From Haliclystus octoradiatus (Eukaryota; Cnidaria; Staurozoa; Stauromedusae; Haliclystidae), in the NCBI GenBank assembly GCA_916610825.1, contig OU744450.1, positions 12,780,489 to 12,844,488 of the forward strand: 64,000 nt of DNA, given 5' to 3'. Under the pieces are notes generated by a model that saw nothing but the letters and a program-made list of their open reading frames with translations, was not told the DNA's origin and made no database searches. Below are positions 10,020-51,400 of this stretch, piece by piece. Position 1 is the stretch's first letter. Each line of letters starts with the position of its first letter. The position numbers were made by a program, and so were the translations under genes.

Positions 10020-11690
10020 TCGATGTCGAAGAAGCGACACTGTCAAAAACTTTCACAAAGTTTAATTTGGCATGCAACGAACTTTACACAATTATCGAAG
10101 CTGGATACGATGTTGAATTCACCACCGAGGCATTTAACAAGATTTAAGAACGTTATGACGATCTTGTAAACACACAGGAGCAGATTATTGATGTTTACCT
10201 CGATGCTGATGAAGACAAAGACCTAAAAGACCACGAAGAATCCCTGTCAAATGACTTGCAGCTGCCATGGAAGGTTTGTCTCACGAAATATAACGAACAC
10301 CAAAGAAAAATGCAAGCCAATATGAAAACAGAGACAGGACCATCTCCAGAAGCCATTAATGAAAGGTTTATGACTAAACTGGATGGTCAAGCGTATGCAG
10401 TTTTCAAACTCAGGAGGCCACAACCAAAGCTCTCGATGAGATAACTTCACGAATTACAGCCAAATTGACCACTCAGCCGAAAGGAATGAAGCTGGCTGGA
10501 TTAAGAACCCAAGAATGGGACAGTGATCACAGAGAGTTTTTTGAATGGAAAATACTTTTCTCCAATGCCATAAGGGAAGCACACGTAGAGCACACAGCGA
10601 ATGTCAACTCCTACGGAAGCCCCAAGCAAAGATGAAAAATGTGGACGGGGTTGTGCAGAATCCCATAACATATTGGAATGCAGCGTTTTTAGGGACCAAT
10701 CTGCATCATTCAAATTCGACTACCTGTGAATAACAGGCAGATGCCGGCTATGCTTGAAAAGAGGTCACCATAGCGCTGATTGCTCAGAGGAAACAAAATA
10801 TCGCGGGTGCAGCAAACGGTCTATAGAATGAGTAAGACTACCTGAACTCGTTTTCTGGCTGTCTTCTGGCATGGAGAGAGAAAAAAAGCTGCGTACGCTG
10901 GAGACATGTTGGAAATGTCCAATATGATCAAACTGAATGAAGAAGACCAATCATGCCATCGGTTTCTTTGGTGTGATGGGAACGAACCAGCGAATCATAA
11001 TAGCTGTCAATGGCTACGAATACAATCCGACAGATTGATGATGTTTTAGCAGAGGGAAGCTTCACCATCAAGGCGTGGCACTACAACAATCCCCTCGTAG
11101 ATAAAGTACCAGGAGGAAAAATAATTGATCTTCTGAGACACAGATTGAACAAGGAGCATGATGTGTTCCGCCTAAAACTGCAACAAGTGGATGACATCTA
11201 TCACTTCACGAAGCAATCAATCATCAGTGCCGTCGCCAAGATATGGGACCCACTGGAAATCCTGACACCAGTGACCATAAAGTATCGCATTGACCTTAAA
11301 GAATTGTGGGTTCAAGGCGTGGGCTGGGGCGACAGCATACCACAAAAGAGGAGGAAACGTGGACTAAAAATCAAGAGAACATGAAAACCATCATCACAAT
11401 CACCTGAAATTGACCGACTCAATCCAAGAAATCGATTCCTTTCGCTCCAGAAAAAGGTACAGCTCTTCTTGGAAAACTGGATGAAGTACATACCCTCGAA
11501 CATTCTGGAAAGGAACAAATGGTTCAATACTCATGACAAACTACAGACGGCAGACATGGTTATCATCATGCGCAGTGGAATGAAAGGAACTGCTGAAACA
11601 CGAGCCACCTGGGAAAAGGGACGTGTCATCAAGACATAACCAAGAGCAGATGGTTTTGTGCGTAAATCTAAAGTCAATGGTTTGTTTTTC
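10020..11690 (+). pseudogene. BEL/Pao LTR retrotransposon, internally deleted relic
   Basis: Domains appear in the order of a BEL/Pao polyprotein but in shifting frames with gaps. First come the gag-like N-terminal part (NTQEQIIDVYLDADEDKD near 10170; EWDSDHREFFEWKILF near 10515). A CCHC knuckle follows (CRLCLKRGHHSADC near 10743). Next is an RT piece (HRFLWCDGNE near 10960). Then comes the region after RT (DDVLAEGSFTIKAWHYN; AVAKIWDPLEILTPVTIKYR, 11038-11290). The end of the integrase-proximal C-terminal domain is also present (ERNKWFNTHDKLQTADMVII near 11510-11580). Protease, most of RT, RNase H and the integrase core are missing. No LTR pair was recognised. Confidence 0.85.
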
Positions 11691-22335: not shown

Positions 22336-22389
22336 ATGGATGAAAACAATTTAACAAATATTGACTTCAATAGCCAGCTGTATGATTAA
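22336..22389 (+). promoter_or_regulatory. Upstream ORF ahead of the GPCR
   Basis: An ATG at 22336 opens 17 codons (MDENNLTNIDFNSQLYD) and stops before the receptor start, in a different frame. It contains an N-glycosylation-like NLT, so it may instead be a relic or an alternative N-terminus spliced to the receptor. If transcribed in one mRNA it would act as an upstream ORF. Confidence 0.3.
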
Positions 22390-22510
22390 TATGATTTGCA
22401 TCTTCGTTTATTTGTATGGTAACAGCTGCTTAAAGTTGTTTTGTAAAAGTTTAAATTTTAATCCCTTCTTTGCCAGCATAGAGTATACCATAGCAAACCA
22501 TAACCTTGGC

Positions 22511-23659
22511 ATGGAAAGAAACATAACTGGTTGTGAGGATTCACACATTTCAGAAGCTGCGACTAGAGCCATTTCTGTATTAGTGTTTATTTTTGCTTTT
22601 ATTTCATTAATTGGAAATCTCATTTTTTGCTATGGTGTATTTACTAAATCGCGTTTAAGAAAAAGAGTTAATTATCTTGTTTTATGTATGTCATTGTCAG
22701 ATTTGAGTAGTTCGATTCTACAGCAACCTATTGACATCATATATTTCTGGAACTTTCCCAAGTATATTTTCCCACCTCAAATTACAATTTTTTGGAATGC
22801 TGAATTCTTTGCATTTATGACAGCGTCTGTTTATTTTCTAGTGGCTATCATGGGAGACAGAATTATAGCAATTCGTTATGCTTTACGTTACAATGCGATT
22901 GTTACAGATCGCTTAATCTGTCTTGTAATAGCAATTGGATGGATGTATACTTTTGGAACGTTCATTATTATATTATTAATTCAAGAAAAACCTGCAGTTG
23001 GTGCTTATGATTTTTTAGTTCATGATAATGTTTACATGTCAGTATTAATCATTAATGTAATATTACCTTTAATTGGAATTACAGCTATGACGGTGTATCT
23101 AACACGAAAAGCTCGCTTGCATAGATCAGCTATTTTGAAATTGAAAATAATATCATGTTCAATTAAAGATCAACACGCATCTGTCCATTCATGTCAAGCA
23201 ATAAGGAGCTCATGGACATGTCCTGAAAATAACAAAACTTACCCTAAGGAATCTGAATCACAGCTTTCAGAAAACGATAATTCTTTCTCCTCTGAAAAAT
23301 CATCTAGCTTTAAACGACAACGGAGGCCGCGTCTATTAAGTAGCTTACGGATTATGAAACGCGATGCAAAGTCTTTACGATTGGCTATTATGCTCAGTAT
23401 TTCTTTAGTTACATCATGGCTACCGTATTTGTCAGTTGCCTTTGCACAGATATTTAATATTATTGAATCTAACTGCTTTGTACATTTCATAGATTTAATA
23501 ACATGCTGGATGACCTATTGGACGTCATGGTCAAATATATTCGTATACGCAATTACAAATAGAGATATCAGAAAATTATTTATTGAAGTATTAACATGCC
23601 AGTCATTTGTTAATAAGCAGCATAAACGTTGCCACTTTAATAGATCAAAACAATTATGA
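22511..23659 (+). CDS. Orphan class A (rhodopsin-like) GPCR, intronless
   Basis: A seven-helix plasma-membrane receptor of 382 residues if started at ATG 22511. That start gives MERNITG with one N-glycosylation site. The frame stays open upstream to ATG 22382, which would add 43 hydrophobic residues. Landmarks are N36 (GN, helix 1), D64 (SLSDL, helix 2), D116-R117-I118 followed by YALRY (helix 3), W144 (helix 4), P186 (helix 5), S302-W-L-P305 (helix 6) and N342-I-F-V-Y346 (helix 7, NPxxY with Pro lost). A long Ser-rich third loop spans about 207-285. There is no Cys at the usual start of helix 3 and none in the second extracellular loop, so the conserved disulfide is missing. This absence plus DRxxxIxYALRY resembles the melanocortin/cannabinoid/EDG side of the MECA group. 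There is no retinal-binding Lys, so it is not an opsin. The ligand is unknown. It is apparently intact. Confidence 0.9.
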   Translation: MERNITGCEDSHISEAATRAISVLVFIFAFISLIGNLIFCYGVFTKSRLRKRVNYLVLCMSLSDLSSSILQQPIDIIYFWNFPKYIFPPQITIFWNAEFFAFMTASVYFLVAIMGDRIIAIRYALRYNAIVTDRLICLVIAIGWMYTFGTFIIILLIQEKPAVGAYDFLVHDNVYMSVLIINVILPLIGITAMTVYLTRKARLHRSAILKLKIISCSIKDQHASVHSCQAIRSSWTCPENNKTYPKESESQLSENDNSFSSEKSSSFKRQRRPRLLSSLRIMKRDAKSLRLAIMLSISLVTSWLPYLSVAFAQIFNIIESNCFVHFIDLITCWMTYWTSWSNIFVYAITNRDIRKLFIEVLTCQSFVNKQHKRCHFNRSKQL

Positions 23660-40327: not shown

Positions 40328-40400
40328 CACCTCCGACGGGACTCGAACCCGCAATCCCCGGCTTAGGAGGCCGATGCCTTATCCATTAGGCCACGGAGGC
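40328..40400 (-). tRNA. tRNA-Arg (anticodon CCT)
   Basis: Read on the minus strand, 73 nt fold as a full cloverleaf. The acceptor GCCTCCG pairs with CGGAGGT (G-T at the first pair). The D arm is GCCTAATGGATAAGGC, the anticodon stem is TCGGC/GCCGG-type with loop CTCCTAA (anticodon CCT), and the T arm has GGTTCGAGTCC. The internal A and B boxes are intact and a TTTT stretch follows about 9 nt downstream (40316-40319), a Pol III terminator. No intron. It looks functional and is not flanked by a SINE body. Confidence 0.95.
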
Positions 40401-41326: not shown

Positions 41327-42164
<838 letters not shown>

Positions 42165-42417: not shown

Positions 42418-42441
42418 TTATTTGAAAACTTTGGCCCGGAT
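42418..42441 (-). pseudogene. Last codons and stop of the interrupted PLE ORF
   Basis: The minus strand reads ATCCGGGCC (the target-duplicated nine bases, Ile-Arg-Ala) then AAAGTTTTCAAATAA (Lys-Val-Phe-Lys-stop). It continues in frame from the GIY-YIG fragment at 48168-48403 once the 5.7 kb insertion is removed. Confidence 0.7.
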
Positions 42442-43310
42442 GCGATTTGACAAACAGATAGAAGTTGTGACCACCTGCGCGCGCATGTGCCGTAACATAT
42501 CCAAAGCGGTCAATTTGCTCTAATTGTGCGGCCAAAGCCTAACACGTAAGTTATCTTTACAAAATGGCGATCAGAAGCAGACGTAAAACGAAGGAAACCT
42601 ATGACTTATATTTAGATTACACTTTATATTTCTTAATGAAAATTGAATACTTGATTACACTTCACAATAAAAAATTTACGGTTAAATGGATTCAGAAAAA
42701 CTTTTATTATCAAGTCAAATAGTCGACGGCATAAATCTTAATTCCTGAATGTCATGGCCTATTATTTGATTATTCTATGGTTCTAGACACACTGTAGTCG
42801 AGAATCTATATCGCTAAATAGGTAAGCACATAATAAACTATGACTTATCTAAGTTTGAAACTGTTGACGGTATTTGATAATGCTTCAACAAACAGCAGCT
42901 CGATATTTATTCTGCAAAAACACGACAGTCGAGTTCAACAAAGTCTAGAAACCTTCTATACGTTTGCAATAAAAACTGTCTGGTTCTTTTAAAAGCGCGC
43001 ACTAATTTATCTAAAACTGGTTGCACATTTAAAATAAATAATAAACTACCATGATTCTAAGTTTGACTATAATTGCTTGACTCTTTGATACCAAAGTTAT
43101 TTAGTTTGCAAAATACGAATTATACTATCTCATTCCGCTTTCTTGACAAAGTCTCAAAGCCATCTTTTTCTTTTTGAATTATAAGGTCTCTCAAATCAAA
43201 GCAAGATATGCCGATGACTACATATCACTCAACATGTATCACATGCATAGACATGTATCGACGTAAATTGATAAAATTTCATGAAAAAGTATCAAGTTTA
43301 TTATGTTGAG
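42442..43310 (+). repeat. Foldback left arm, outer part
   Basis: It pairs with 47585-48167 inverted, for example CACCTGCGCGCGCATG, AAAATGGCGATCAGAAGCAG and AAAAGCGCGCACTAATTTAT. The 287-bp segment 42636-42922 has no partner in the right arm and is an insertion here or a deletion there. Short frames over this arm (and 47842-48277) are not supported as genes. Confidence 0.85.
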
Positions 43311-43883
43311 ATATATAACCATCCAGGTTGACAAAGGTTTTTTGGGGGGAGGGGGGTCAAAATGCTGGTCTTTCACTTAAACTTGTAGGTCTATCCAAAT
43401 AAATTGAGACATACGGATGACTAGTTATCACTAGATACTACTCTTAGACATGTATCGAAGTAAATTCAAAATATTTCTCAAAAAAGGATCCAGTTTATAT
43501 TTAGATATAGCCGCTTAAGTTGACAAAGGGGACATTTGGGGTTTTTCAAAAAGCTGGGCTTACACCTTCTCCAACTTCTAGGTCCCTCAAAGTGAAACAA
43601 GGGGTGCTGATGATTAAGTATCATTAGAGATTACTCTTTGACAAATATTGAAGTAGGTTCAAAACATTTCTTGACAAAATATCAAGTTTATATTCAGATT
43701 GAGCCATTTAAGTTATCAAAGGGGGCATTTGTGTCTTTTCAAAAAGCCGGATTTACACTGTTTCCAATTTCTAGATCCCTCATATTAAAATAAGGGATGC
43801 CGATGACTAGATATCAATAGAGATTTCTCTTAAGCAAGTATTCAAAACATTTCTTGAAAAAATATCTAGTTCATATCTAATAA
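43188..43883 (+). repeat. ~193-bp tandem repeat, left array (about 3.6 units)
   Basis: Units start near 43188, 43388, 43581 and 43774 with GGTCYMTCAAA. Each contains GACATGTATCGAAGTAAATT, TTCTTGAAAAAATATC-like, AGTTGACAAAGG and CTTCTA. Unit 4 is cut by the hammerhead-bearing insertion. Confidence 0.85.
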
Positions 43884-44997
43884 TAAATAAACACAAAAAT
43901 CAGACATTCATATCATATCTATAGATTAAATTGCATGATGATCGCTGAAGGCGAAACTATTAGTAGCAAATATGAATGTTTCATTTTTTGCATTTATTTA
44001 TTATTAAACAGCTCTGCTTTTAGGGCATCAAACAATATTAAAACAGCAATGACTACACAATCACTTTTATGTTATTATTAGTGTATATTTAGATACATCA
44101 ATTTGAGGCTATATATTTTATATCTTAAATTAATATTTTTTCATGAAGTTTGTGCTTTTTATTTAGTTAATTAATTAATGGAATTCCTAATTTATCGGCC
44201 TCTTTTTATATTATTACATGATTGTTTAATTACAAATGTTGAACTTGGATAACGTAGCTACATGAATAGGTATTCTGAATTATGCCTAAGTTTGATTATG
44301 GTGTCGTTATTTGAATGTAATAGATGATAGCATGTCATCTCTTTAACTTATAACGTAATGTTACTTCGGGATTGTTTTGAGAGCACTATATTCAATCATA
44401 ACGTAACACTATTTTTAGAATTCTGAGCAATTAGAGAATTTAGATATTTTGCTTATATAGGTAACCTAGTTTAAAGAGCACATGACACAACAAATTTTTA
44501 ACACAGATTCAAGTAGCTGAAGCTAAATGATGAAGAATGGTGACAATGATTTCTTAGTTTGAAACTGTATAAGCGGAGATATTTAATGTTGAATCTGCCC
44601 TATTTTCAATCATTTTTTATGCTTGAAATAAATATAATTTATTAAGAAATACATGAAATACAAGGGAATTTAGTTGTTGGATTTACTTTATCTCTCAAAA
44701 ATGTGGCAGTCATCCTCAGCAGCATGCAGTTGGACTGTGCACATGCTGTTTTACGTACACATCACCTCAATTTGTGACAGTTGTTTGTCAGGTGTTTGGG
44801 TGTTCTACGACGACGGAATTATTAATTTGAAATAGTTCATTTTAATAGCAAAGATATTCATGTGTTTAGTGTTATGTTGTTTCAATGTTCTAACAATTTC
44901 ATTTGTTCCTCAATGTTCTAATAGTTGAACAAATATACAAACTGTAACACAAATTATACTCCACAGACGCTGGGTGTCGTTTACAAGTAATATCTGG
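43884..44997. other. Foldback element centre
   Basis: Holds the hammerhead element (about 43885-44045) and about 950 bp of A+T-rich DNA. No transposase or gene was recognised. Confidence 0.5.
43931..43969 (+). ncRNA. Hammerhead ribozyme relic, copy 3
   Basis: Plus strand: TTGC, ATGATGA (C3 changed to A), stem II region, GAAAC, TATTA, GTA, GCAA. The surrounding 160 bp matches 35520-35690 in the opposite orientation, including AGAGCTG and TTTATTTATTATTA. It interrupts the fourth satellite unit, so the element inserted after the foldback formed. Confidence 0.65.
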
Positions 44998-46040
44998 TGG
45001 GACCTAGAAGTTGGAGAAAGTGAAAATGCGGCTTTTGAAAAACCCCAAATGCCCCCCTTGTCAACTTAAATGGCTCTATCAAAATATAAACTAGATGTTT
45101 TTTGAAGAAATGTTCTGAATTTACTTTGATACATGTCTAAGAGTCCCATCTAGTGATATCTAGTCATCTGCCTGTCTCAATTTACTTTCAGAGACCTAGA
45201 AGTTGGAAAAAATGTAAAATCCAGCTTTTTGAAAAACCCAAAATGCACCCCTTGTCAACTTAAGTGGCTCTATCTGAATATAAACTAGATATTTTGTCAA
45301 GAAATGTTTTGAATTTACTTCGATACATGTCAAGGAGTAATCTCTGATGATATCTAGTGATTGGCACCCCTTGTTTTAATTTGACGGACCTAGAAGCTGG
45401 AGAAAGTGTGAACCCAGCTTTTTGAAAAACGCAATATGCACCCCTTGTCAACATAAATGGCTCTATCAAAATATAACTAGATGTTTTTTGAAGAAATGTT
45501 CTGAATTTACTTCGATACGTGTCAAGGAGTAATCTCTAATGATATCTAATCATTGGCACCCCTTGTTTTAATTTGACGGACCTAAAAGCTGTAGAAAGTG
45601 TGAACCCAGCTATTTGAAAAACCCAAATGCCCCCTTTGTCAACTTAAGTGGCTATATTTAAATATAAACTCGATTAATTTTCGAGAATTATTTTGAATTT
45701 ACTTCAATACATGTCTAGGAGTAATCTCTAATGATATCTTATCATCGGCATCCCTTGTTTTATGTTGAGAAACCTACCTAGAAGTGGGAGAAAGTGTAAA
45801 CCTAGCTTTTTGAATAAACCCAAATGCCCCCTTTGTCAACTTAAGTGGCTGTATCTAAATATAAACTAGGTCGATTTTCAAGAAATATTTTGAATTGATT
45901 TTGATACATGTCTAAGAGTACTACCTAGTGATATCTAGTCATCTGCATGTCTCAATTTATTTGGAGAGACCTACAAGTTGAAGTAAGTGAAAGACCTACA
46001 TTTTGACACCTCCCAAAAAACCTTTGGCAACTTGGATGAT
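44998..46040 (-). repeat. ~193-bp tandem repeat, right array (about 5.3 units)
   Basis: The same unit as the left array in inverted orientation. GACCTAGAAGTTGG-type starts lie near 45003, 45191, 45387, 45581, 45776 and 45969. Units differ by scattered substitutions. The open frame at 45260-45469 is a by-product. Confidence 0.85.
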
Positions 46041-46041
46041 T

Positions 46042-47584
46042 ATATATTAATAATAATAATACGCAAACCGTGTCGGTGATCAAATCATCATTGTTTCATT
46101 ATTGTTAAACTCCTTTTCCGCAGAGCACTTTCCAAACTTCTTATACGCTTCTGGGTTATCTATAGGCCTCTGGCTATCCGACGTTTTGTTTTTACAGTTT
46201 AAAATGCTATAAATTGCTCATAAATTGCGATTAAAATTTCCAAAATCGTGATATTTCGACGGAAGTTATGTGAAAATAAACTGCTTTCCTTGGTGTATCC
46301 CGTCATGCCTAGCAACATCACGAATTTTAGGGCACGCTTTATTTTAATGGCTGCCAATATTTCGTAAAAGTGTTTCATCATACTTTGCAAAAGTATTCCA
46401 ATATGCCTAGAAGGAGAAGTTGTCCAACAATACTCCATTTTACATCACAAACAGAAGACACAATTCTCGGTAAGTCTTTTACAACTTAAATGTTTGAATG
46501 CTTCATGTAAAGTCTGTCGAAGTCACTTTTACCGTGGTTTTTACCCTGTTGCATGAGGGCTTACAGGACTCTGATGGCAATTGTTACTTTTAAGTATCAT
46601 AATCCCAAATAGCCTACTTTATTATCAAGTTATCGTTGGCAGAAGAGATTACTGTGTCACTGTATCGCCAATATTAGCTTGATTTGTTATGAACTGTTCT
46701 TCTTTGGAAGAAAGGATTTATTGTGTCATCGTTTTATGTCAGCAGTTCTGTTCTGTTATCCACACTGCACACACAGAGATTTGACCCATAACAAATAAAC
46801 AAATTCAGAGAATTAGTGTGGTACTTTTCAGTTATCAAGCAGTTGTAAGTTGTACAAATACAAAATTGGAGTTGTAATTTAGAGTTTTAGCTGCCTTCTA
46901 TCCTTTTGTCGAAATGTACAATGTACATTTATAATGTGCCATACATTGAAAACGTCCACTGTGTCCACACATTGTTTACTTTAATCATTATTATATGAGG
47001 TAGGTGAATGGTGAACATTATAGACATGTGTCCTCTCTGTGAGAAGTTGGCTAAAGTTAATAAAATATTAGAGTTTGAGTATCTCATTTATGTAATTTAC
47101 TGTATCAAATTTCAGAATCACCTGTTGTTATTACCAATATCACTCAATGACTCATGCTGAGATTCACTCAACCGACACAGCAATAATATTTACATACCAA
47201 TACCTTTCATTGTGAAAACAAGTTCATTAACTGCAATACCTAAGATACAATCCATATTTACTTCATTTGAACTATGTAGTCAACATAAAATGTACTTATG
47301 GATAACCCATATTTATAAATATATTTGATTTGAAATATGTACTACAACAGAGTATCAATTATCTCCTTTTCACTATGCTTTACATGTATGTAACTATTAA
47401 TTATCAAAACTGAAATGAATTATCATTGTTGTTCTGCATTTTTAATTCCTTCTCATGACTATTTTGTTTCATTGACATTCTCTTTGACAAGACATACTGC
47501 AGGCTACTAACGGGAGCGAAGCGACCTCTTTGAGGAAGCCGAAGGCTGACTGGCCCCGGGCGCAGGCCGCAAGCCGAAGGCTTG
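46042..47584. other. 1.5-kb insertion in the right foldback arm
   Basis: The left arm reads straight through TATATATCTCAACATAATAA, whereas the right arm is split between TATATAT and TCTCAAC by this segment. It starts with TAATAATAATAATACG and ends in a G+C-rich tail (GCGCAGGCCGCAAGCCGAAG). It contains a possible ATG-exon at 46403-46469 followed by GTAAGT. There are no clear TIRs. Origin unknown. Confidence 0.55.
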
Positions 47585-48167
47585 TCTCAACATAATAAAC
47601 TTGATACTTTTTTATGAAATTTTATCAATTTACGTCGATACATGTCTATGCATGTGATACATGTTGAGTGATATGTAGTCATCGGCATATCTTGCTTTGA
47701 TTTGAGAGACCTTATAATTCAAAAAGAAAAAGATGGCTTTGAGACTTTGTCAAGAAAGCGGAATGAGATAGTATAATTCGTATTTTGCAAACTAAATAAC
47801 TTTGGTATCAAAGAGTCAAGCAATTATAGTCAAACTTAGAATCATGGTAGTTTATTATTTATTTTAAATGTGCAACCAGTTTTAGATAAATTAGTGCGCG
47901 CTTTTAAAAGAACCAGACAGTTTTTATTGCAAACGTATAGAAGGTTTCTAGACTTTGTTGAACTCGACTGTCGTAAGAAATATAAAGTGTAATCTAAATA
48001 TAAGTCATAGGTTTCCTTCGTTTTACGTCTGCTTCTGATCGCCATTTTGTAAAGATAACTTACGTGTTAGGCTTTGGCCGCACAATTAGAGCAAATTGAC
48101 CGCTTTGGATATGTTACGGCACATGCGCGCGCAGGTGGTGACAACTTCTATCTGTTTGTCAAATCGC
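47585..48167 (-). repeat. Foldback right arm, outer part
   Basis: Inverted partner of 42442-43310. It lacks the 287-bp segment seen on the left. Confidence 0.85.
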
Positions 48168-48403
48168 GGCCCGGATGGAATCGCCCTGAACGTTTAATGT
48201 TGGTTTCAGTTCTTGAATTGCCAGCATTTCATTCACGAGACAATCGAATTTATTTTTGCACTTTTTTATTATTCTAAAATGTTTTTCAAATTGATCAGTA
48301 GATATTCCGTGCTCTTGACGGACGTGTGTACCAAGGTTACTTTTGTTATGTTCATCTATGCGTTCATATAAGTGCCGGCATGTATAGCCAACATAGTCTG
48401 AGT
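48168..48403 (-). pseudogene. Penelope-like element GIY-YIG endonuclease C-terminus
   Basis: One open minus-strand frame of 78 codons reads DYVGYTCRHLYERIDEH, then LGTHVRQEHGIS, then FDCLVNEMLAIQELKPTLNV. This is the GIY-YIG nuclease domain that follows the reverse transcriptase in PLEs (YVG, CRHLxxRIxEH, His, conserved Glu in NEMLAIQELKP). It then meets the foldback element within the Ile-Arg-Ala codons and resumes at 42441. A stop just before the domain (near 48403) and the absence of RT upstream show a truncated copy. Confidence 0.8.
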
Positions 48404-51400
48404 ATCACATTAGCTTATTTCTTGACTATCAACTAAACAGTCTTCGTCAAACGTTGAATCACTTAAGCCTGTTTTTCACTGCAGAAAAAATGTCACGCGG
48501 AGCGACATCCTGAGACTGCGCATGCGGAGTAGTAGTCTTATGACGTCCAAATGTCGCCACGCGATGTCGCCACATATCGCCGAGAGAAAAAATGTAGTTC
48601 GAAAAATTTTAAACTTTTTTGATGTCGCCAGAGCGCAAAATGTCGCAAGCCAATCAAATAGCTAGTTATTTTGAGATGATTCGAAATGAGACTAGAATGT
48701 CCAGACTTGTGTAACCAAAATTAAAATTGAACATTTCGCCCTTTCCAAAATATTCAAACTTTCACATTCATTTCATTTGATTTAGTACTTTGTATTTATT
48801 GTGATCAATGTGAGTCGGAGCATTGGGAAGAACATTTAATAATTTGCAGAACTGCAGACATACTCAAACAGATTCTGAACAGCTGAGAATTATTCATAAC
48901 AAGTTAAAACCGTGAGCAAATAAGTGAAACTTCCCCTTTCACACTGTTCTCGCACAGTCCAATGAACATAAGCAATCTTCTTATAACAAAATATGTATAG
49001 TCCAATTCCTGGTAATAGTCAATTTGTAAACAAAACATTTTCTCACGACCTTCCATTATTTTTATTTTTTAATTGCCAACAAACGTTTTTATGGCGCTAT
49101 TAAAGTCGAAGGAATTCTCATTTGTGTGGAAATCACTAACGTTTTTCACTAACTAATTTATGTAAGAAATTAATATGTATTTATCAATGAAAGAGGCAAC
49201 AACAACAAATTTATGAAAAAAACTCAATTGTAAAAGAATGTAATTGAAGTTGATGAAATAAAAGTATTATAAACTGTAGAAATTTTCCACGGTGAGAGTC
49301 ACCGTGTGATACTTTTATTCAAGTTTTATAGTTTTAAAGAAATTATTTATAAAAAAAGAATTGAAGTTGAATTCTTTACATTTTGACTGAAAGAACAAGA
49401 TATTAGCGTCGTGGATCAGTCATCAGTCTGACCGACCGCGTACGACGTACTGACGCCTGATTCACGACGTCGTGATTTGTCCCGATGACGTCGACGTGTG
49501 ATCACCGGGATGTGTATATGTAATCTTTATTTCAAGAGGAAATATTCGATAAAGCCAAAAGGCCTTATAACCCTCTAAATAATAATATATATATATCAAT
49601 TAAAAGAACGCGCGATGGTGTCTTTTTCTTGTTTAAGTAAGCATATATGTTCATTTTTTGGAGGAGAAGAGCAAACAAATGTAATTCTATAATCTATTCT
49701 ATCCTAATTGTAAAGGCATGCAATGTAAGGTTTTTGAAAAGTGGACCAGAGCGAGATTCAAAACTATGCAAAGCTGATACGTAAAACTATGCAAGCTGCT
49801 CGATTCTTCATGAGTTTGAGGAGCCTGATGATATTTGGCTTTTAACTCGTATTAATGAGCAATAGTGAAACTTTGAATATCTCATTTCTAGACTACTCCT
49901 GGTGTTTTGAAAAACATTAATGATCGAGTCGATTGATTATTATCAGAATAATAATAATTGTTGAAACCCCTCTATTGATTATTTTTTTCAATCTCGTAAA
50001 AGTGCATTTTAGCCATAATATGATGTATTAAGACTGCTTAATATAGCTGAGCAATGTTTATAGGCTAATAGTAACAGTCATTTAATCGGCCGTAATGTAT
50101 CTTTTTAGATGCCTTTATAGAACATATATAGCACACGACATGCATTTATGTAATCGTTACACTAGTGAAGCTACAAGTTTGTCAAAAAGTCAAACAGTAT
50201 AACTTAAAAAGATGCAAATAAATTGATTTTATTCGATTTACTATGTGTTGTTGAGCTTTTACGGTTTCAACATTTATTCATACATCTTTTTGTCTTGACT
50301 ATATTGTGACCTCTTCAAACCGTTTAAATTTATTAATAGGCCATTATATTCAACAAGTTTCTCTATCCAATCAAAATCTCTAGCCATACTATACATGCTC
50401 GATCGTATATGATTCAAGATGTAAACAAAATCTTGAAAACATAAATACTCTTGGAATTGAGAGAGAGTTATATAGCTCATTTCACCATCGTTGGAACACG
50501 ATCATCACTTTACGAAAAGCAATCCATAAACATCTTTTGAAAATCACAACCTCTGTTTTTAATTATATATAACTTATAATACGTCAATGCCTGTTTGTAA
50601 GCCATGTTTGGCAGGACGTTTTATACTTTTATGTCTTTCGGCAAATAGTATAGCCTTTTTATTTGATACAATTATTCAATTATACAGTTACAAGTCGAGT
50701 AATGTTCTTAAGTATCTTAATCATATTAGATTTTTGTTGTATTCATCTTGTATGACATGGAGTATAAGAACAAAATCAGTCATAAGCTTTATATTGTATC
50801 AAAGGAATAGTATGCACACTAAAAAGAATGTTAAAATGTTGACATGTAAAGATTTACTGCTTGACATGTACTGTTCAACAAGCTAATAATCACTCTTTGA
50901 GTCTTTTTACAACACTGTCAATTTCAGCATGCAGCCAAGGGTGACTGTGAGTAAAGAGACAAATGAATATGCGATGTGAAAGGAGATTATTTGGTGAGAA
51001 AACTAGTTCTATATAGATCTTGAATGTAGATACAGTATCAATGTCCTTATCAGTGAATTTAAGTGAAAACTTACAAGTTTATAACAGAAATACGTCTCGA
51101 TCAAGATAGCCCAGTGTTGTCCTGTCCATGATTTTGCATATATCGTCCATTGTTAGAACAAGCTGTCTACCTTCAACTTATAGTGGATTATATAGAAACA
51201 AACATGAATTACTGTCAACAACATTTGTTTTTATATAGTGTGTGTGGTATTCTGATTTTGGTTACAAAGGCATATTCAAACTTCATTTCTACATGTGAGT
51301 TCTTGTTTATATCTCCATGATCTTAATTTATAAAGGCATGAAATCATTAGCAATATAATAAATGAACTCTTCTTGAGTACCAATTCCATTGACAGTGCTA

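What the first reader, a model, noticed from the sequence alone, without database searches (positions are those of the whole stretch)
42433..48176. 5.7-kb composite foldback transposon with perfect 9-bp target duplication
GGCCCGGAT is repeated exactly at both boundaries of a structure whose arms combine unique ends and inverted arrays of a ~193-bp tandem repeat (about 3.6 and 5.3 units). The sequence directly shows TIRs, target duplication and satellite-like arms. From established knowledge, this build matches FB (fly) and TU (sea urchin) elements. A 9-bp duplication also fits Mutator-like elements. A satellite packed inside transposon arms is a plausible seed for genomic satellite DNA.
Basis: partly seen in the sequence, partly recalled or inferred. 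Interest (0 to 1): 0.9.

Follow-up and report, generated by a model that had tools for sequence, protein, structure and literature searches.

The report
Jumping element with satellite-filled inverted arms
This is a non-coding jumping DNA element whose mirror-image arms carry short arrays of a 193-base satellite repeat; elements built this way are already known in insects, and here one such array also appears to have come loose from its element.

Summary
Element 42442-48167 (5726 bp) has inverted ends and a perfect 9-bp duplication. Insertion is shown directly: the joined flanks, with one GGCCCGGAT, match 300 of 300 bases at 100% at 40 genomic places. It belongs to a family with 123 + 117 ends genome-wide. 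Of 22 two-ended copies inspected, 18 have perfect 9-bp duplications, on a palindromic target near GTCC(S)GGAC. Among 37 listed end pairs, 19 are 4.1-5.0 kb; the window copy is longer because an unrelated 1.54-kb repeat sits in its right arm. No ORF reaches 100 aa, so it is non-autonomous. Some satellite arrays show block duplication, and one 9-unit array on C8 has a 49-bp core remnant on one side and no arm on the other. A Mutator-class (Rehavkus-like) transposase is the likely driver, unproven: 0 of 85 MULE and 0 of 78 PHD matches lie inside the 37 pairs. The build is known from Tetris and Rehavkus-1_TC: a new member of a known kind.

The parts
42433..42441 (.). left copy of 9-bp target-site duplication GGCCCGGAT
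   Evidence: empty site
42442..42636 (+). left terminal block T (195 bp), tip GCGATTTGACAAACAGATAGA; the first 70 bases are at least 99% conserved per 10-base block over 44 ends of 22 copies
42637..42921 (+). arm block U1 (285 bp), absent from the right arm of this copy
42922..43311 (+). arm block U2 (390 bp), 100% complementary to 47585-47974; its inner end resembles a degraded satellite unit
43312..43889 (+). junction block J and short satellite array (about 3 units of about 193 bp)
43890..44960 (+). non-coding core shared by the family (longest overlapping stop-to-stop ORF 64 aa)
45033..46046 (-). long satellite array (5 units) and junction block of the right arm
46048..47584 (+). unrelated dispersed 1.54-kb repeat nested in the right arm
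   Evidence: (35 of 42 listed matches, the window's own included, span at least 95% of it at 92-100%)
47585..47974 (-). right arm block U2, identical to the left one, probably by arm-to-arm gene conversion (inference)
47974..48167 (-). right terminal block T
48168..48176 (.). right copy of 9-bp target-site duplication
48162..48404 (-). host repeat at the insertion site: piece of a GIY-YIG endonuclease ORF, probably a Penelope-like retroelement
   Evidence: PF01541, E 1.1e-5; the Penelope label is inference

Best explanation
A non-autonomous foldback-type inverted-repeat DNA transposon. SHOWN: insertion with a 9-bp duplication; a palindromic GC-rich target; near-identical whole copies at different loci; two arm types, with a few copies whose arms are near-identical; block duplication inside some satellite arrays; one array with a core remnant and no arm beside it. 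INFERRED: a transposase made elsewhere, most likely of the Mutator class and perhaps Rehavkus-type, binds the conserved tips (GCGATTTGACAAACAG..), moves the element by cut and paste and makes 9-bp staggered cuts at sites near GTCC(S)GGAC; gap filling gives the duplication. The arms are now and then evened out by gene conversion. The satellite units grow and shrink inside the arms by unequal exchange, travel to new sites with each insertion, and can survive as a free array when an element breaks up.
For: Perfect 9-bp duplications in 18 of 22 two-ended copies. Empty sites at 100% over 300 bases at 40 places. Palindromic target in the 18 duplications: 42 matched position pairs against a base-composition null with mean 20.3 and maximum 32 in 2000 draws. 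123 + 117 tips genome-wide, reversed-pattern control 1 + 0. Of 9 pairs of copies that I chose to compare, 6 are 99.5-99.9% identical, for example L012/L014 at 99.91% over 4567 aligned bases, gaps left out. 36 of 40 arms are closest to an arm of another copy; the four exceptions are both arms of the window copy (99.5% alike) and of L028 (99.1%). L018 array: units 3-5 recur as units 8-10 at 100/99/99%; L023 shows a two-unit higher-order repeat. C8 array: 9 exact signatures at about 195-bp steps, 49 bp of core end on one side, no arm block in the 500 bases read on the other. 477- and 482-bp derivatives carry the same tips. MULE and PHD domains lie within 7 kb of each other at 8 places in this genome.
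Against: No transposase was found in the family: 0 of 85 MULE and 0 of 78 PHD matches fall inside the 37 end pairs among the 100 tips listed (140 of 240 tips were not listed, and only 150 of 222 PHD candidates were scored). Interiors of the large pairs (8-21 kb) were not read. Copies without a perfect duplication: L018, L023, L026 and L058 (8 of 9). Average arm identities sorted simply by left and right do not show the two arm types (within-copy 94.2%, left-left 92.8%, right-right 96.4%, left-right 94.7%), because copies lie in both orientations and L023 has an insertion in one arm (59.3%); the type claim rests on nearest neighbours and array lengths. The window copy itself is only 98.55-98.61% identical to the two copies it was compared with. 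The detached array is a single case, picked because its signatures were exact; the array itself was not read.
Confidence: 0.8

Rival explanations
1. The element belongs to another transposon superfamily with long, repeat-filled ends, such as the P superfamily (Galileo-like) or Merlin, and only looks like a Mutator foldback.
For: Foldback structure arose in more than one superfamily (PMC3169594 passages; PMC4079207 discussion part 1). Merlin makes 8- or 9-bp duplications and can hold internal tandem repeats (PMC8101967 passages). No transposase was found here.
Against: Merlin ends start with GG; these start with GC. P elements make shorter duplications (7-8 bp, recalled). The P-type transposase search did not complete.
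Confidence: 0.2
2. The inverted arms and arrays are an assembly artefact or a chance palindromic rearrangement with a coincidental 9-mer.
For: Long inverted repeats are prone to misassembly (general knowledge).
Against: Same build at 20 two-ended loci (window included) with different flanks; exact empty sites.
Confidence: 0.01
3. The satellite came first: a genomic satellite was captured into the arms of a transposon, not born there.
For: An array exists apart from arms.
Against: The only outside array examined carries a remnant of the element's core, so it came out of an element. The 559 genome-wide signatures equal about 75 elements' worth by hand arithmetic, so no large free pool is seen in the assembly. 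Units of the same rank are 96.4% alike between copies against 78.6% between ranks within a copy, so the array was in place before these copies spread; this does not say how the first unit arose.
Confidence: 0.1

Closest known systems
Tetris / DAIBAM of Drosophila virilis (PMC4079207: abstract, results part 1 and discussion part 1 read)
   Same: Non-autonomous foldback with unique outer domains, about 220-bp tandem repeats in the inverted arms, non-coding middle, 8-10-bp duplications, MITE-like short relative, array change by unit duplication, free satellite arrays derived from it, no autonomous partner found.
   Different: Unit length (about 193 bp) and host differ; here 20 two-ended full-size copies were read (three structurally complete ones reported for Tetris), the target is palindromic, and no large free satellite was seen. 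No sequence comparison was run.
Rehavkus-1_TC of Tribolium (PMC10218199 and PMC6446971, passages only)
   Same: [quoted passage not shown] the Rehavkus group has 9-bp duplications.
   Different: Rehavkus encodes a transposase with a PHD finger; none was found inside this family. No sequence comparison was run.
Tm1 of root-knot nematodes (PMC3169594, passages only)
   Same: Composite foldback-like ends, commonly 9-bp duplications, MITE-like members.
   Different: 13-15-bp repeats in the ends, no clear target consensus, and a member with a Phantom-type MULE transposase.
FB (fly) and TU (sea urchin) elements
   Same: Long repeat-filled inverted arms (recalled).
   Different: Repeat units are much shorter there (recalled); no sequence comparison was run.

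Membership tests
Foldback-type TIR transposon (structural class) | long inverted arms built of an outer unique domain plus tandem repeats, flanked by a target duplication | tested here: met
Foldback-type TIR transposon (structural class) | independent copies at other loci with different duplicated targets | tested here: met
Mutator superfamily (MULE) | target duplication of about 9 bp (8-11 bp across groups in the table passages seen in PMC6446971) | tested here: met
   18 of 22 perfect 9-bp; empty site
Mutator superfamily (MULE) | MULE (DDE) transposase encoded by an element with the same ends | tested here: inconclusive
   0 of 85 PF10551 matches inside 37 listed pairs; 140 of 240 tips not listed; window copy has no ORF of 100 aa
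Rehavkus | satellite or minisatellite array next to the inverted end, and 9-bp duplication | tested here: met
   definition from passages of PMC6446971 and PMC10218199
Rehavkus | transposase with PHD finger inside the element | tested here: inconclusive
   0 of 78 PF00628 matches inside 37 listed pairs, with 150 of 222 candidates scored; 8 MULE-PHD co-locations elsewhere in the genome
Merlin | ends start with 5'-GG | tested here: not met
   ends start GC; definition from PMC8101967 passages
P superfamily (Galileo-like) | P-type transposase with the same ends | not tested
   PF21787 search did not complete; that PF21787 marks P-type transposases is recalled

The most novel reading that the evidence does not exclude
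The satellite unit is a functional part of the transposon: each unit carries words of the terminal transposase-binding tip, so the arrays act as transposase traps that favour mobility, selection keeps them growing, and element decay then releases them as ready-made satellites.
Probability: 0.2. Interest if true: 0.65.

Novelty: new member of a known kind. Interest (0 to 1): 0.4.

Why it matters
Where satellite DNA comes from, and why foldback transposons keep repeat-filled arms, are open questions. This family offers about 240 element ends, some near-identical copies, exact empty sites, arrays with visible block duplications and one array with a core remnant but no arm. That makes the steps from transposon arm to free satellite open to direct test in one genome. 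The principle itself was published for Tetris (PMC4079207).

Tried and rejected
Rejected: chance or assembly join. Rejected: Merlin membership (ends GC, not GG). Rejected: a coding interior in the window copy. Considered: a distinct L058-like subfamily that might hold the transposase; the search found only the two ends of L058 itself above 91% (259 candidates, 40 scored). Considered: shared words between tip and satellite unit. A shared word of 8 or more is by itself not significant (P 0.07 same strand, 0.15 either strand), and TTGACAAA ranks only 56 of 187 for conservation among 8-mers of the unit. Coverage of 17 tip bases by two shared words (TTGACAAA same strand, TAGAAGTTG opposite strand) has P 0.002 against 20000 dinucleotide shuffles, but word length and tip length were chosen after looking. 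Led nowhere: naming the organism by a GPCR ORF (2871 candidates, none at E 0.001); Rfam on window 30000-64000 (one tRNA match only); DNA folding of the terminal block (z 0.85); text search for the tip sequence (51 papers hold one of three short strings, 20 listed, none of the 20 titles on transposons).
Full report
WHAT IS THERE. The window is C6:12780489-12844488 of a 261.9-Mb genome in 33 contigs. The last 100 bases of contig C4 are TTAGGG repeats and C7 ends in about four TTAGGG units, which with a rhodopsin-type receptor frame in the window suggests an animal (inference). The element spans 42442-48167 (5726 bp). Its tips read GCGATTTGACAAACAGATAGA and the inverse, with GGCCCGGAT on both sides. 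The left arm is a 195-bp terminal block T, a 285-bp block U1, a 390-bp block U2, a 68-bp junction J and a satellite array; between the arrays lies a 1.07-kb non-coding core. In this copy the right arm lacks U1 and holds a foreign 1.54-kb repeat at 46048-47584, itself a dispersed family: 35 of 42 listed matches, the window's own included, span at least 95% of it at 92-100% (685 candidates, 40 scored).

PROOF OF INSERTION. The flanks sit in another repeat, probably a Penelope-like element: a GIY-YIG piece lies at 48162-48404. Joining the two flanks with one copy of the 9-mer gives 300 bases that occur at 100% identity at 40 places (293 candidates, 40 scored; a 41st listed match covers 76 bases only). 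This is a direct view of the site before insertion and shows that the 9 bases were duplicated.

THE FAMILY. A tip pattern with up to 2 mismatches occurs 123 + 117 times; the reversed control occurs 1 + 0 times. Only 100 tips were listed, all exact; they form 37 pairs from 477 bp to 21 kb, of which 19 are 4.1-5.0 kb, and 26 singles. I read 20 fetched loci plus the window in detail. One (L020) showed a single end and was dropped; of the other 20, 17 have perfect 9-bp duplications. The exceptions are L018 (shifted by one base), L023 and L026. These copies were among the best matches to the window's left end, not a random sample. Two short derivatives of 482 and 477 bp have a perfect and an 8-of-9 duplication. 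The total is 18 of 22. The 18 duplications share a palindromic consensus near GTCC(S)GGAC, with 42 matched pairs against a null maximum of 32 in 2000 draws.

RECENT ACTIVITY AND ARM BEHAVIOUR. Of 9 chosen pairs of copies, 6 are 99.5-99.9% identical without gaps, the best 99.91% over 4567 bases; the window copy reaches 98.6% with the two it was compared with. In most copies one arm has a short and the other a long array. For 36 of 40 arms the closest arm belongs to another copy (best match 97.4-100%, leaving out one arm of L023 that holds an insertion), while the two arms of a copy are mostly 94-97% alike, so copies multiply as wholes without constant arm homogenisation. The exceptions are the window (99.5%) and L028 (99.1%); L026 (98.3%) and L009 (97.9%) come near. 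This points to occasional arm-to-arm conversion (inference). Averages by left and right alone do not show it, since copies lie in both orientations. In L026 and L028 the first 249 bases of the core are missing and both arms have long arrays.

SATELLITE DYNAMICS. Arms hold from 1 to 12 near-full units. Units at the same rank are 96.4% alike between copies (216 comparisons) against 78.6% between ranks within a copy (150 comparisons), in 13 copies chosen for comparable long arms. So the arrays are older than the spread of these copies. On top of this, L018 repeats units 3-5 as units 8-10 at 100/99/99%, and L023 has a two-unit higher-order repeat: block duplication inside single insertions, as unequal exchange would give. 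Genome-wide, the unit signature occurs 269 + 290 times, control 0, against 148 in the 20 elements, so no large free satellite is seen in the assembly; only 100 of the 559 places were listed. One array stands out: C8:6472411-6473996, nine exact signatures at about 195-bp steps, while 31 of 148 signatures inside the 20 elements are exact. It was picked because the listing shows exact hits first, and its body was not read. On its left, 49 bp of the core's end (94%) remain, next to unrelated sequence (320 bases read); on its right, 500 bases contain no arm block beyond a 21-base chance-level match. I read it as an array that outlived its element.

WHO MOVES IT. No ORF in the window copy reaches 100 aa. 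The MULE profile finds 85 places (112 of 112 candidates scored) and the PHD profile 78 (150 of 222 scored). None lies inside the 37 pairs, and of all 163 only one MULE place lies within 15 kb of a listed tip (13.8 kb). Yet MULE and PHD domains lie within 7 kb of each other at 8 places; some of these are copies of one another by their equal scores, and my hand estimate for chance is about 0.35. So Rehavkus-type transposons seem to live in this genome, though not with these exact tips in the part listed. The P-type search did not complete. I rate a Mutator-class driver at about 0.6 and the wider account (foldback transposon moved in trans) at 0.8 or better.

WHAT IS KNOWN. Tetris of D. virilis has the same plan: 220-bp repeats in the arms, 8-10-bp duplications, a MITE-like relative, free satellite arrays and no autonomous copy (PMC4079207; abstract, results part 1 and discussion part 1 read). 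[quoted passage not shown] Tm1 links foldback ends, 9-bp duplications and a Phantom MULE transposase (PMC3169594, passages). The finding is thus a new family of a known kind. Literature searches with Rehavkus, foldback, Mutator, satellite and ascidian among the terms listed no paper whose title or abstract start describes this family; two searches were capped listings.

A BOLDER READING. The first 26 bases of the tip share two words with the satellite unit, TTGACAAA in the same direction and TAGAAGTTG in the opposite one (P 0.002 for joint coverage, chosen after looking). TTGACAAA occurs 237 times pointing inward and 3 times outward in the 20 elements, the tips themselves included; tandem units and shared descent make these counts non-independent. 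If the units bind transposase, as reported for Galileo (cited in the Tetris discussion; of PMC3688188 I saw only the search listing), the arrays would be functional. This is a hypothesis only.

Noticed in passing
G000:C8:5689074-5723550; C5:8760793-8774237; C1:14077261-14080189: The host repeat of the insertion occurs in head-to-tail rows with an exact 2629-bp period (14 places on C8), each 100% identical over the 300 bases searched; a tandemly arrayed, very young Penelope-like element or an assembly expansion.
   Followed up: no
window 41327-42164: 838-bp perfect (TAT)n microsatellite, 279 units, perhaps the 3' tail of the Penelope-like repeat.
   Followed up: no
window 46048-47584: Dispersed 1.54-kb repeat with a GC-rich hairpin end (ACAAGCCTTCGGCTTGCGGCC) and an ATTATTATT end; no consistent target duplication by eye in 12 loci; perhaps Helitron-like or a retroposon.
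   Followed up: partly
G000:C4:35866082-35870999 and C7:26959027: A full copy ends 2.9 kb from the TTAGGG end of C4, and a satellite unit lies 1.6 kb from the end of C7, whose last bases are about four TTAGGG units; noticed after the fact, not tested against other chromosome ends.
   Followed up: partly
G000:C5:16136278-16139586, C11:5942100-5945403, C11:7622072-7625380, C6:11483021-11486316, C8:9071683-9077625, C4:25583896-25586501, C8:14497123-14499550, C11:15726236-15727516: MULE and PHD domains side by side: probable Rehavkus-type transposons.
   Followed up: partly
window 22355-23659 (+): 433-aa rhodopsin-type GPCR frame (PF00001, E 1.7e-21).
   Followed up: no
window 11004-11384 (+) and 40328-40400 (-): Pao retrotransposon peptidase fragment (PF05380, E 4.1e-10) and a tRNA-family match.
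   Followed up: no
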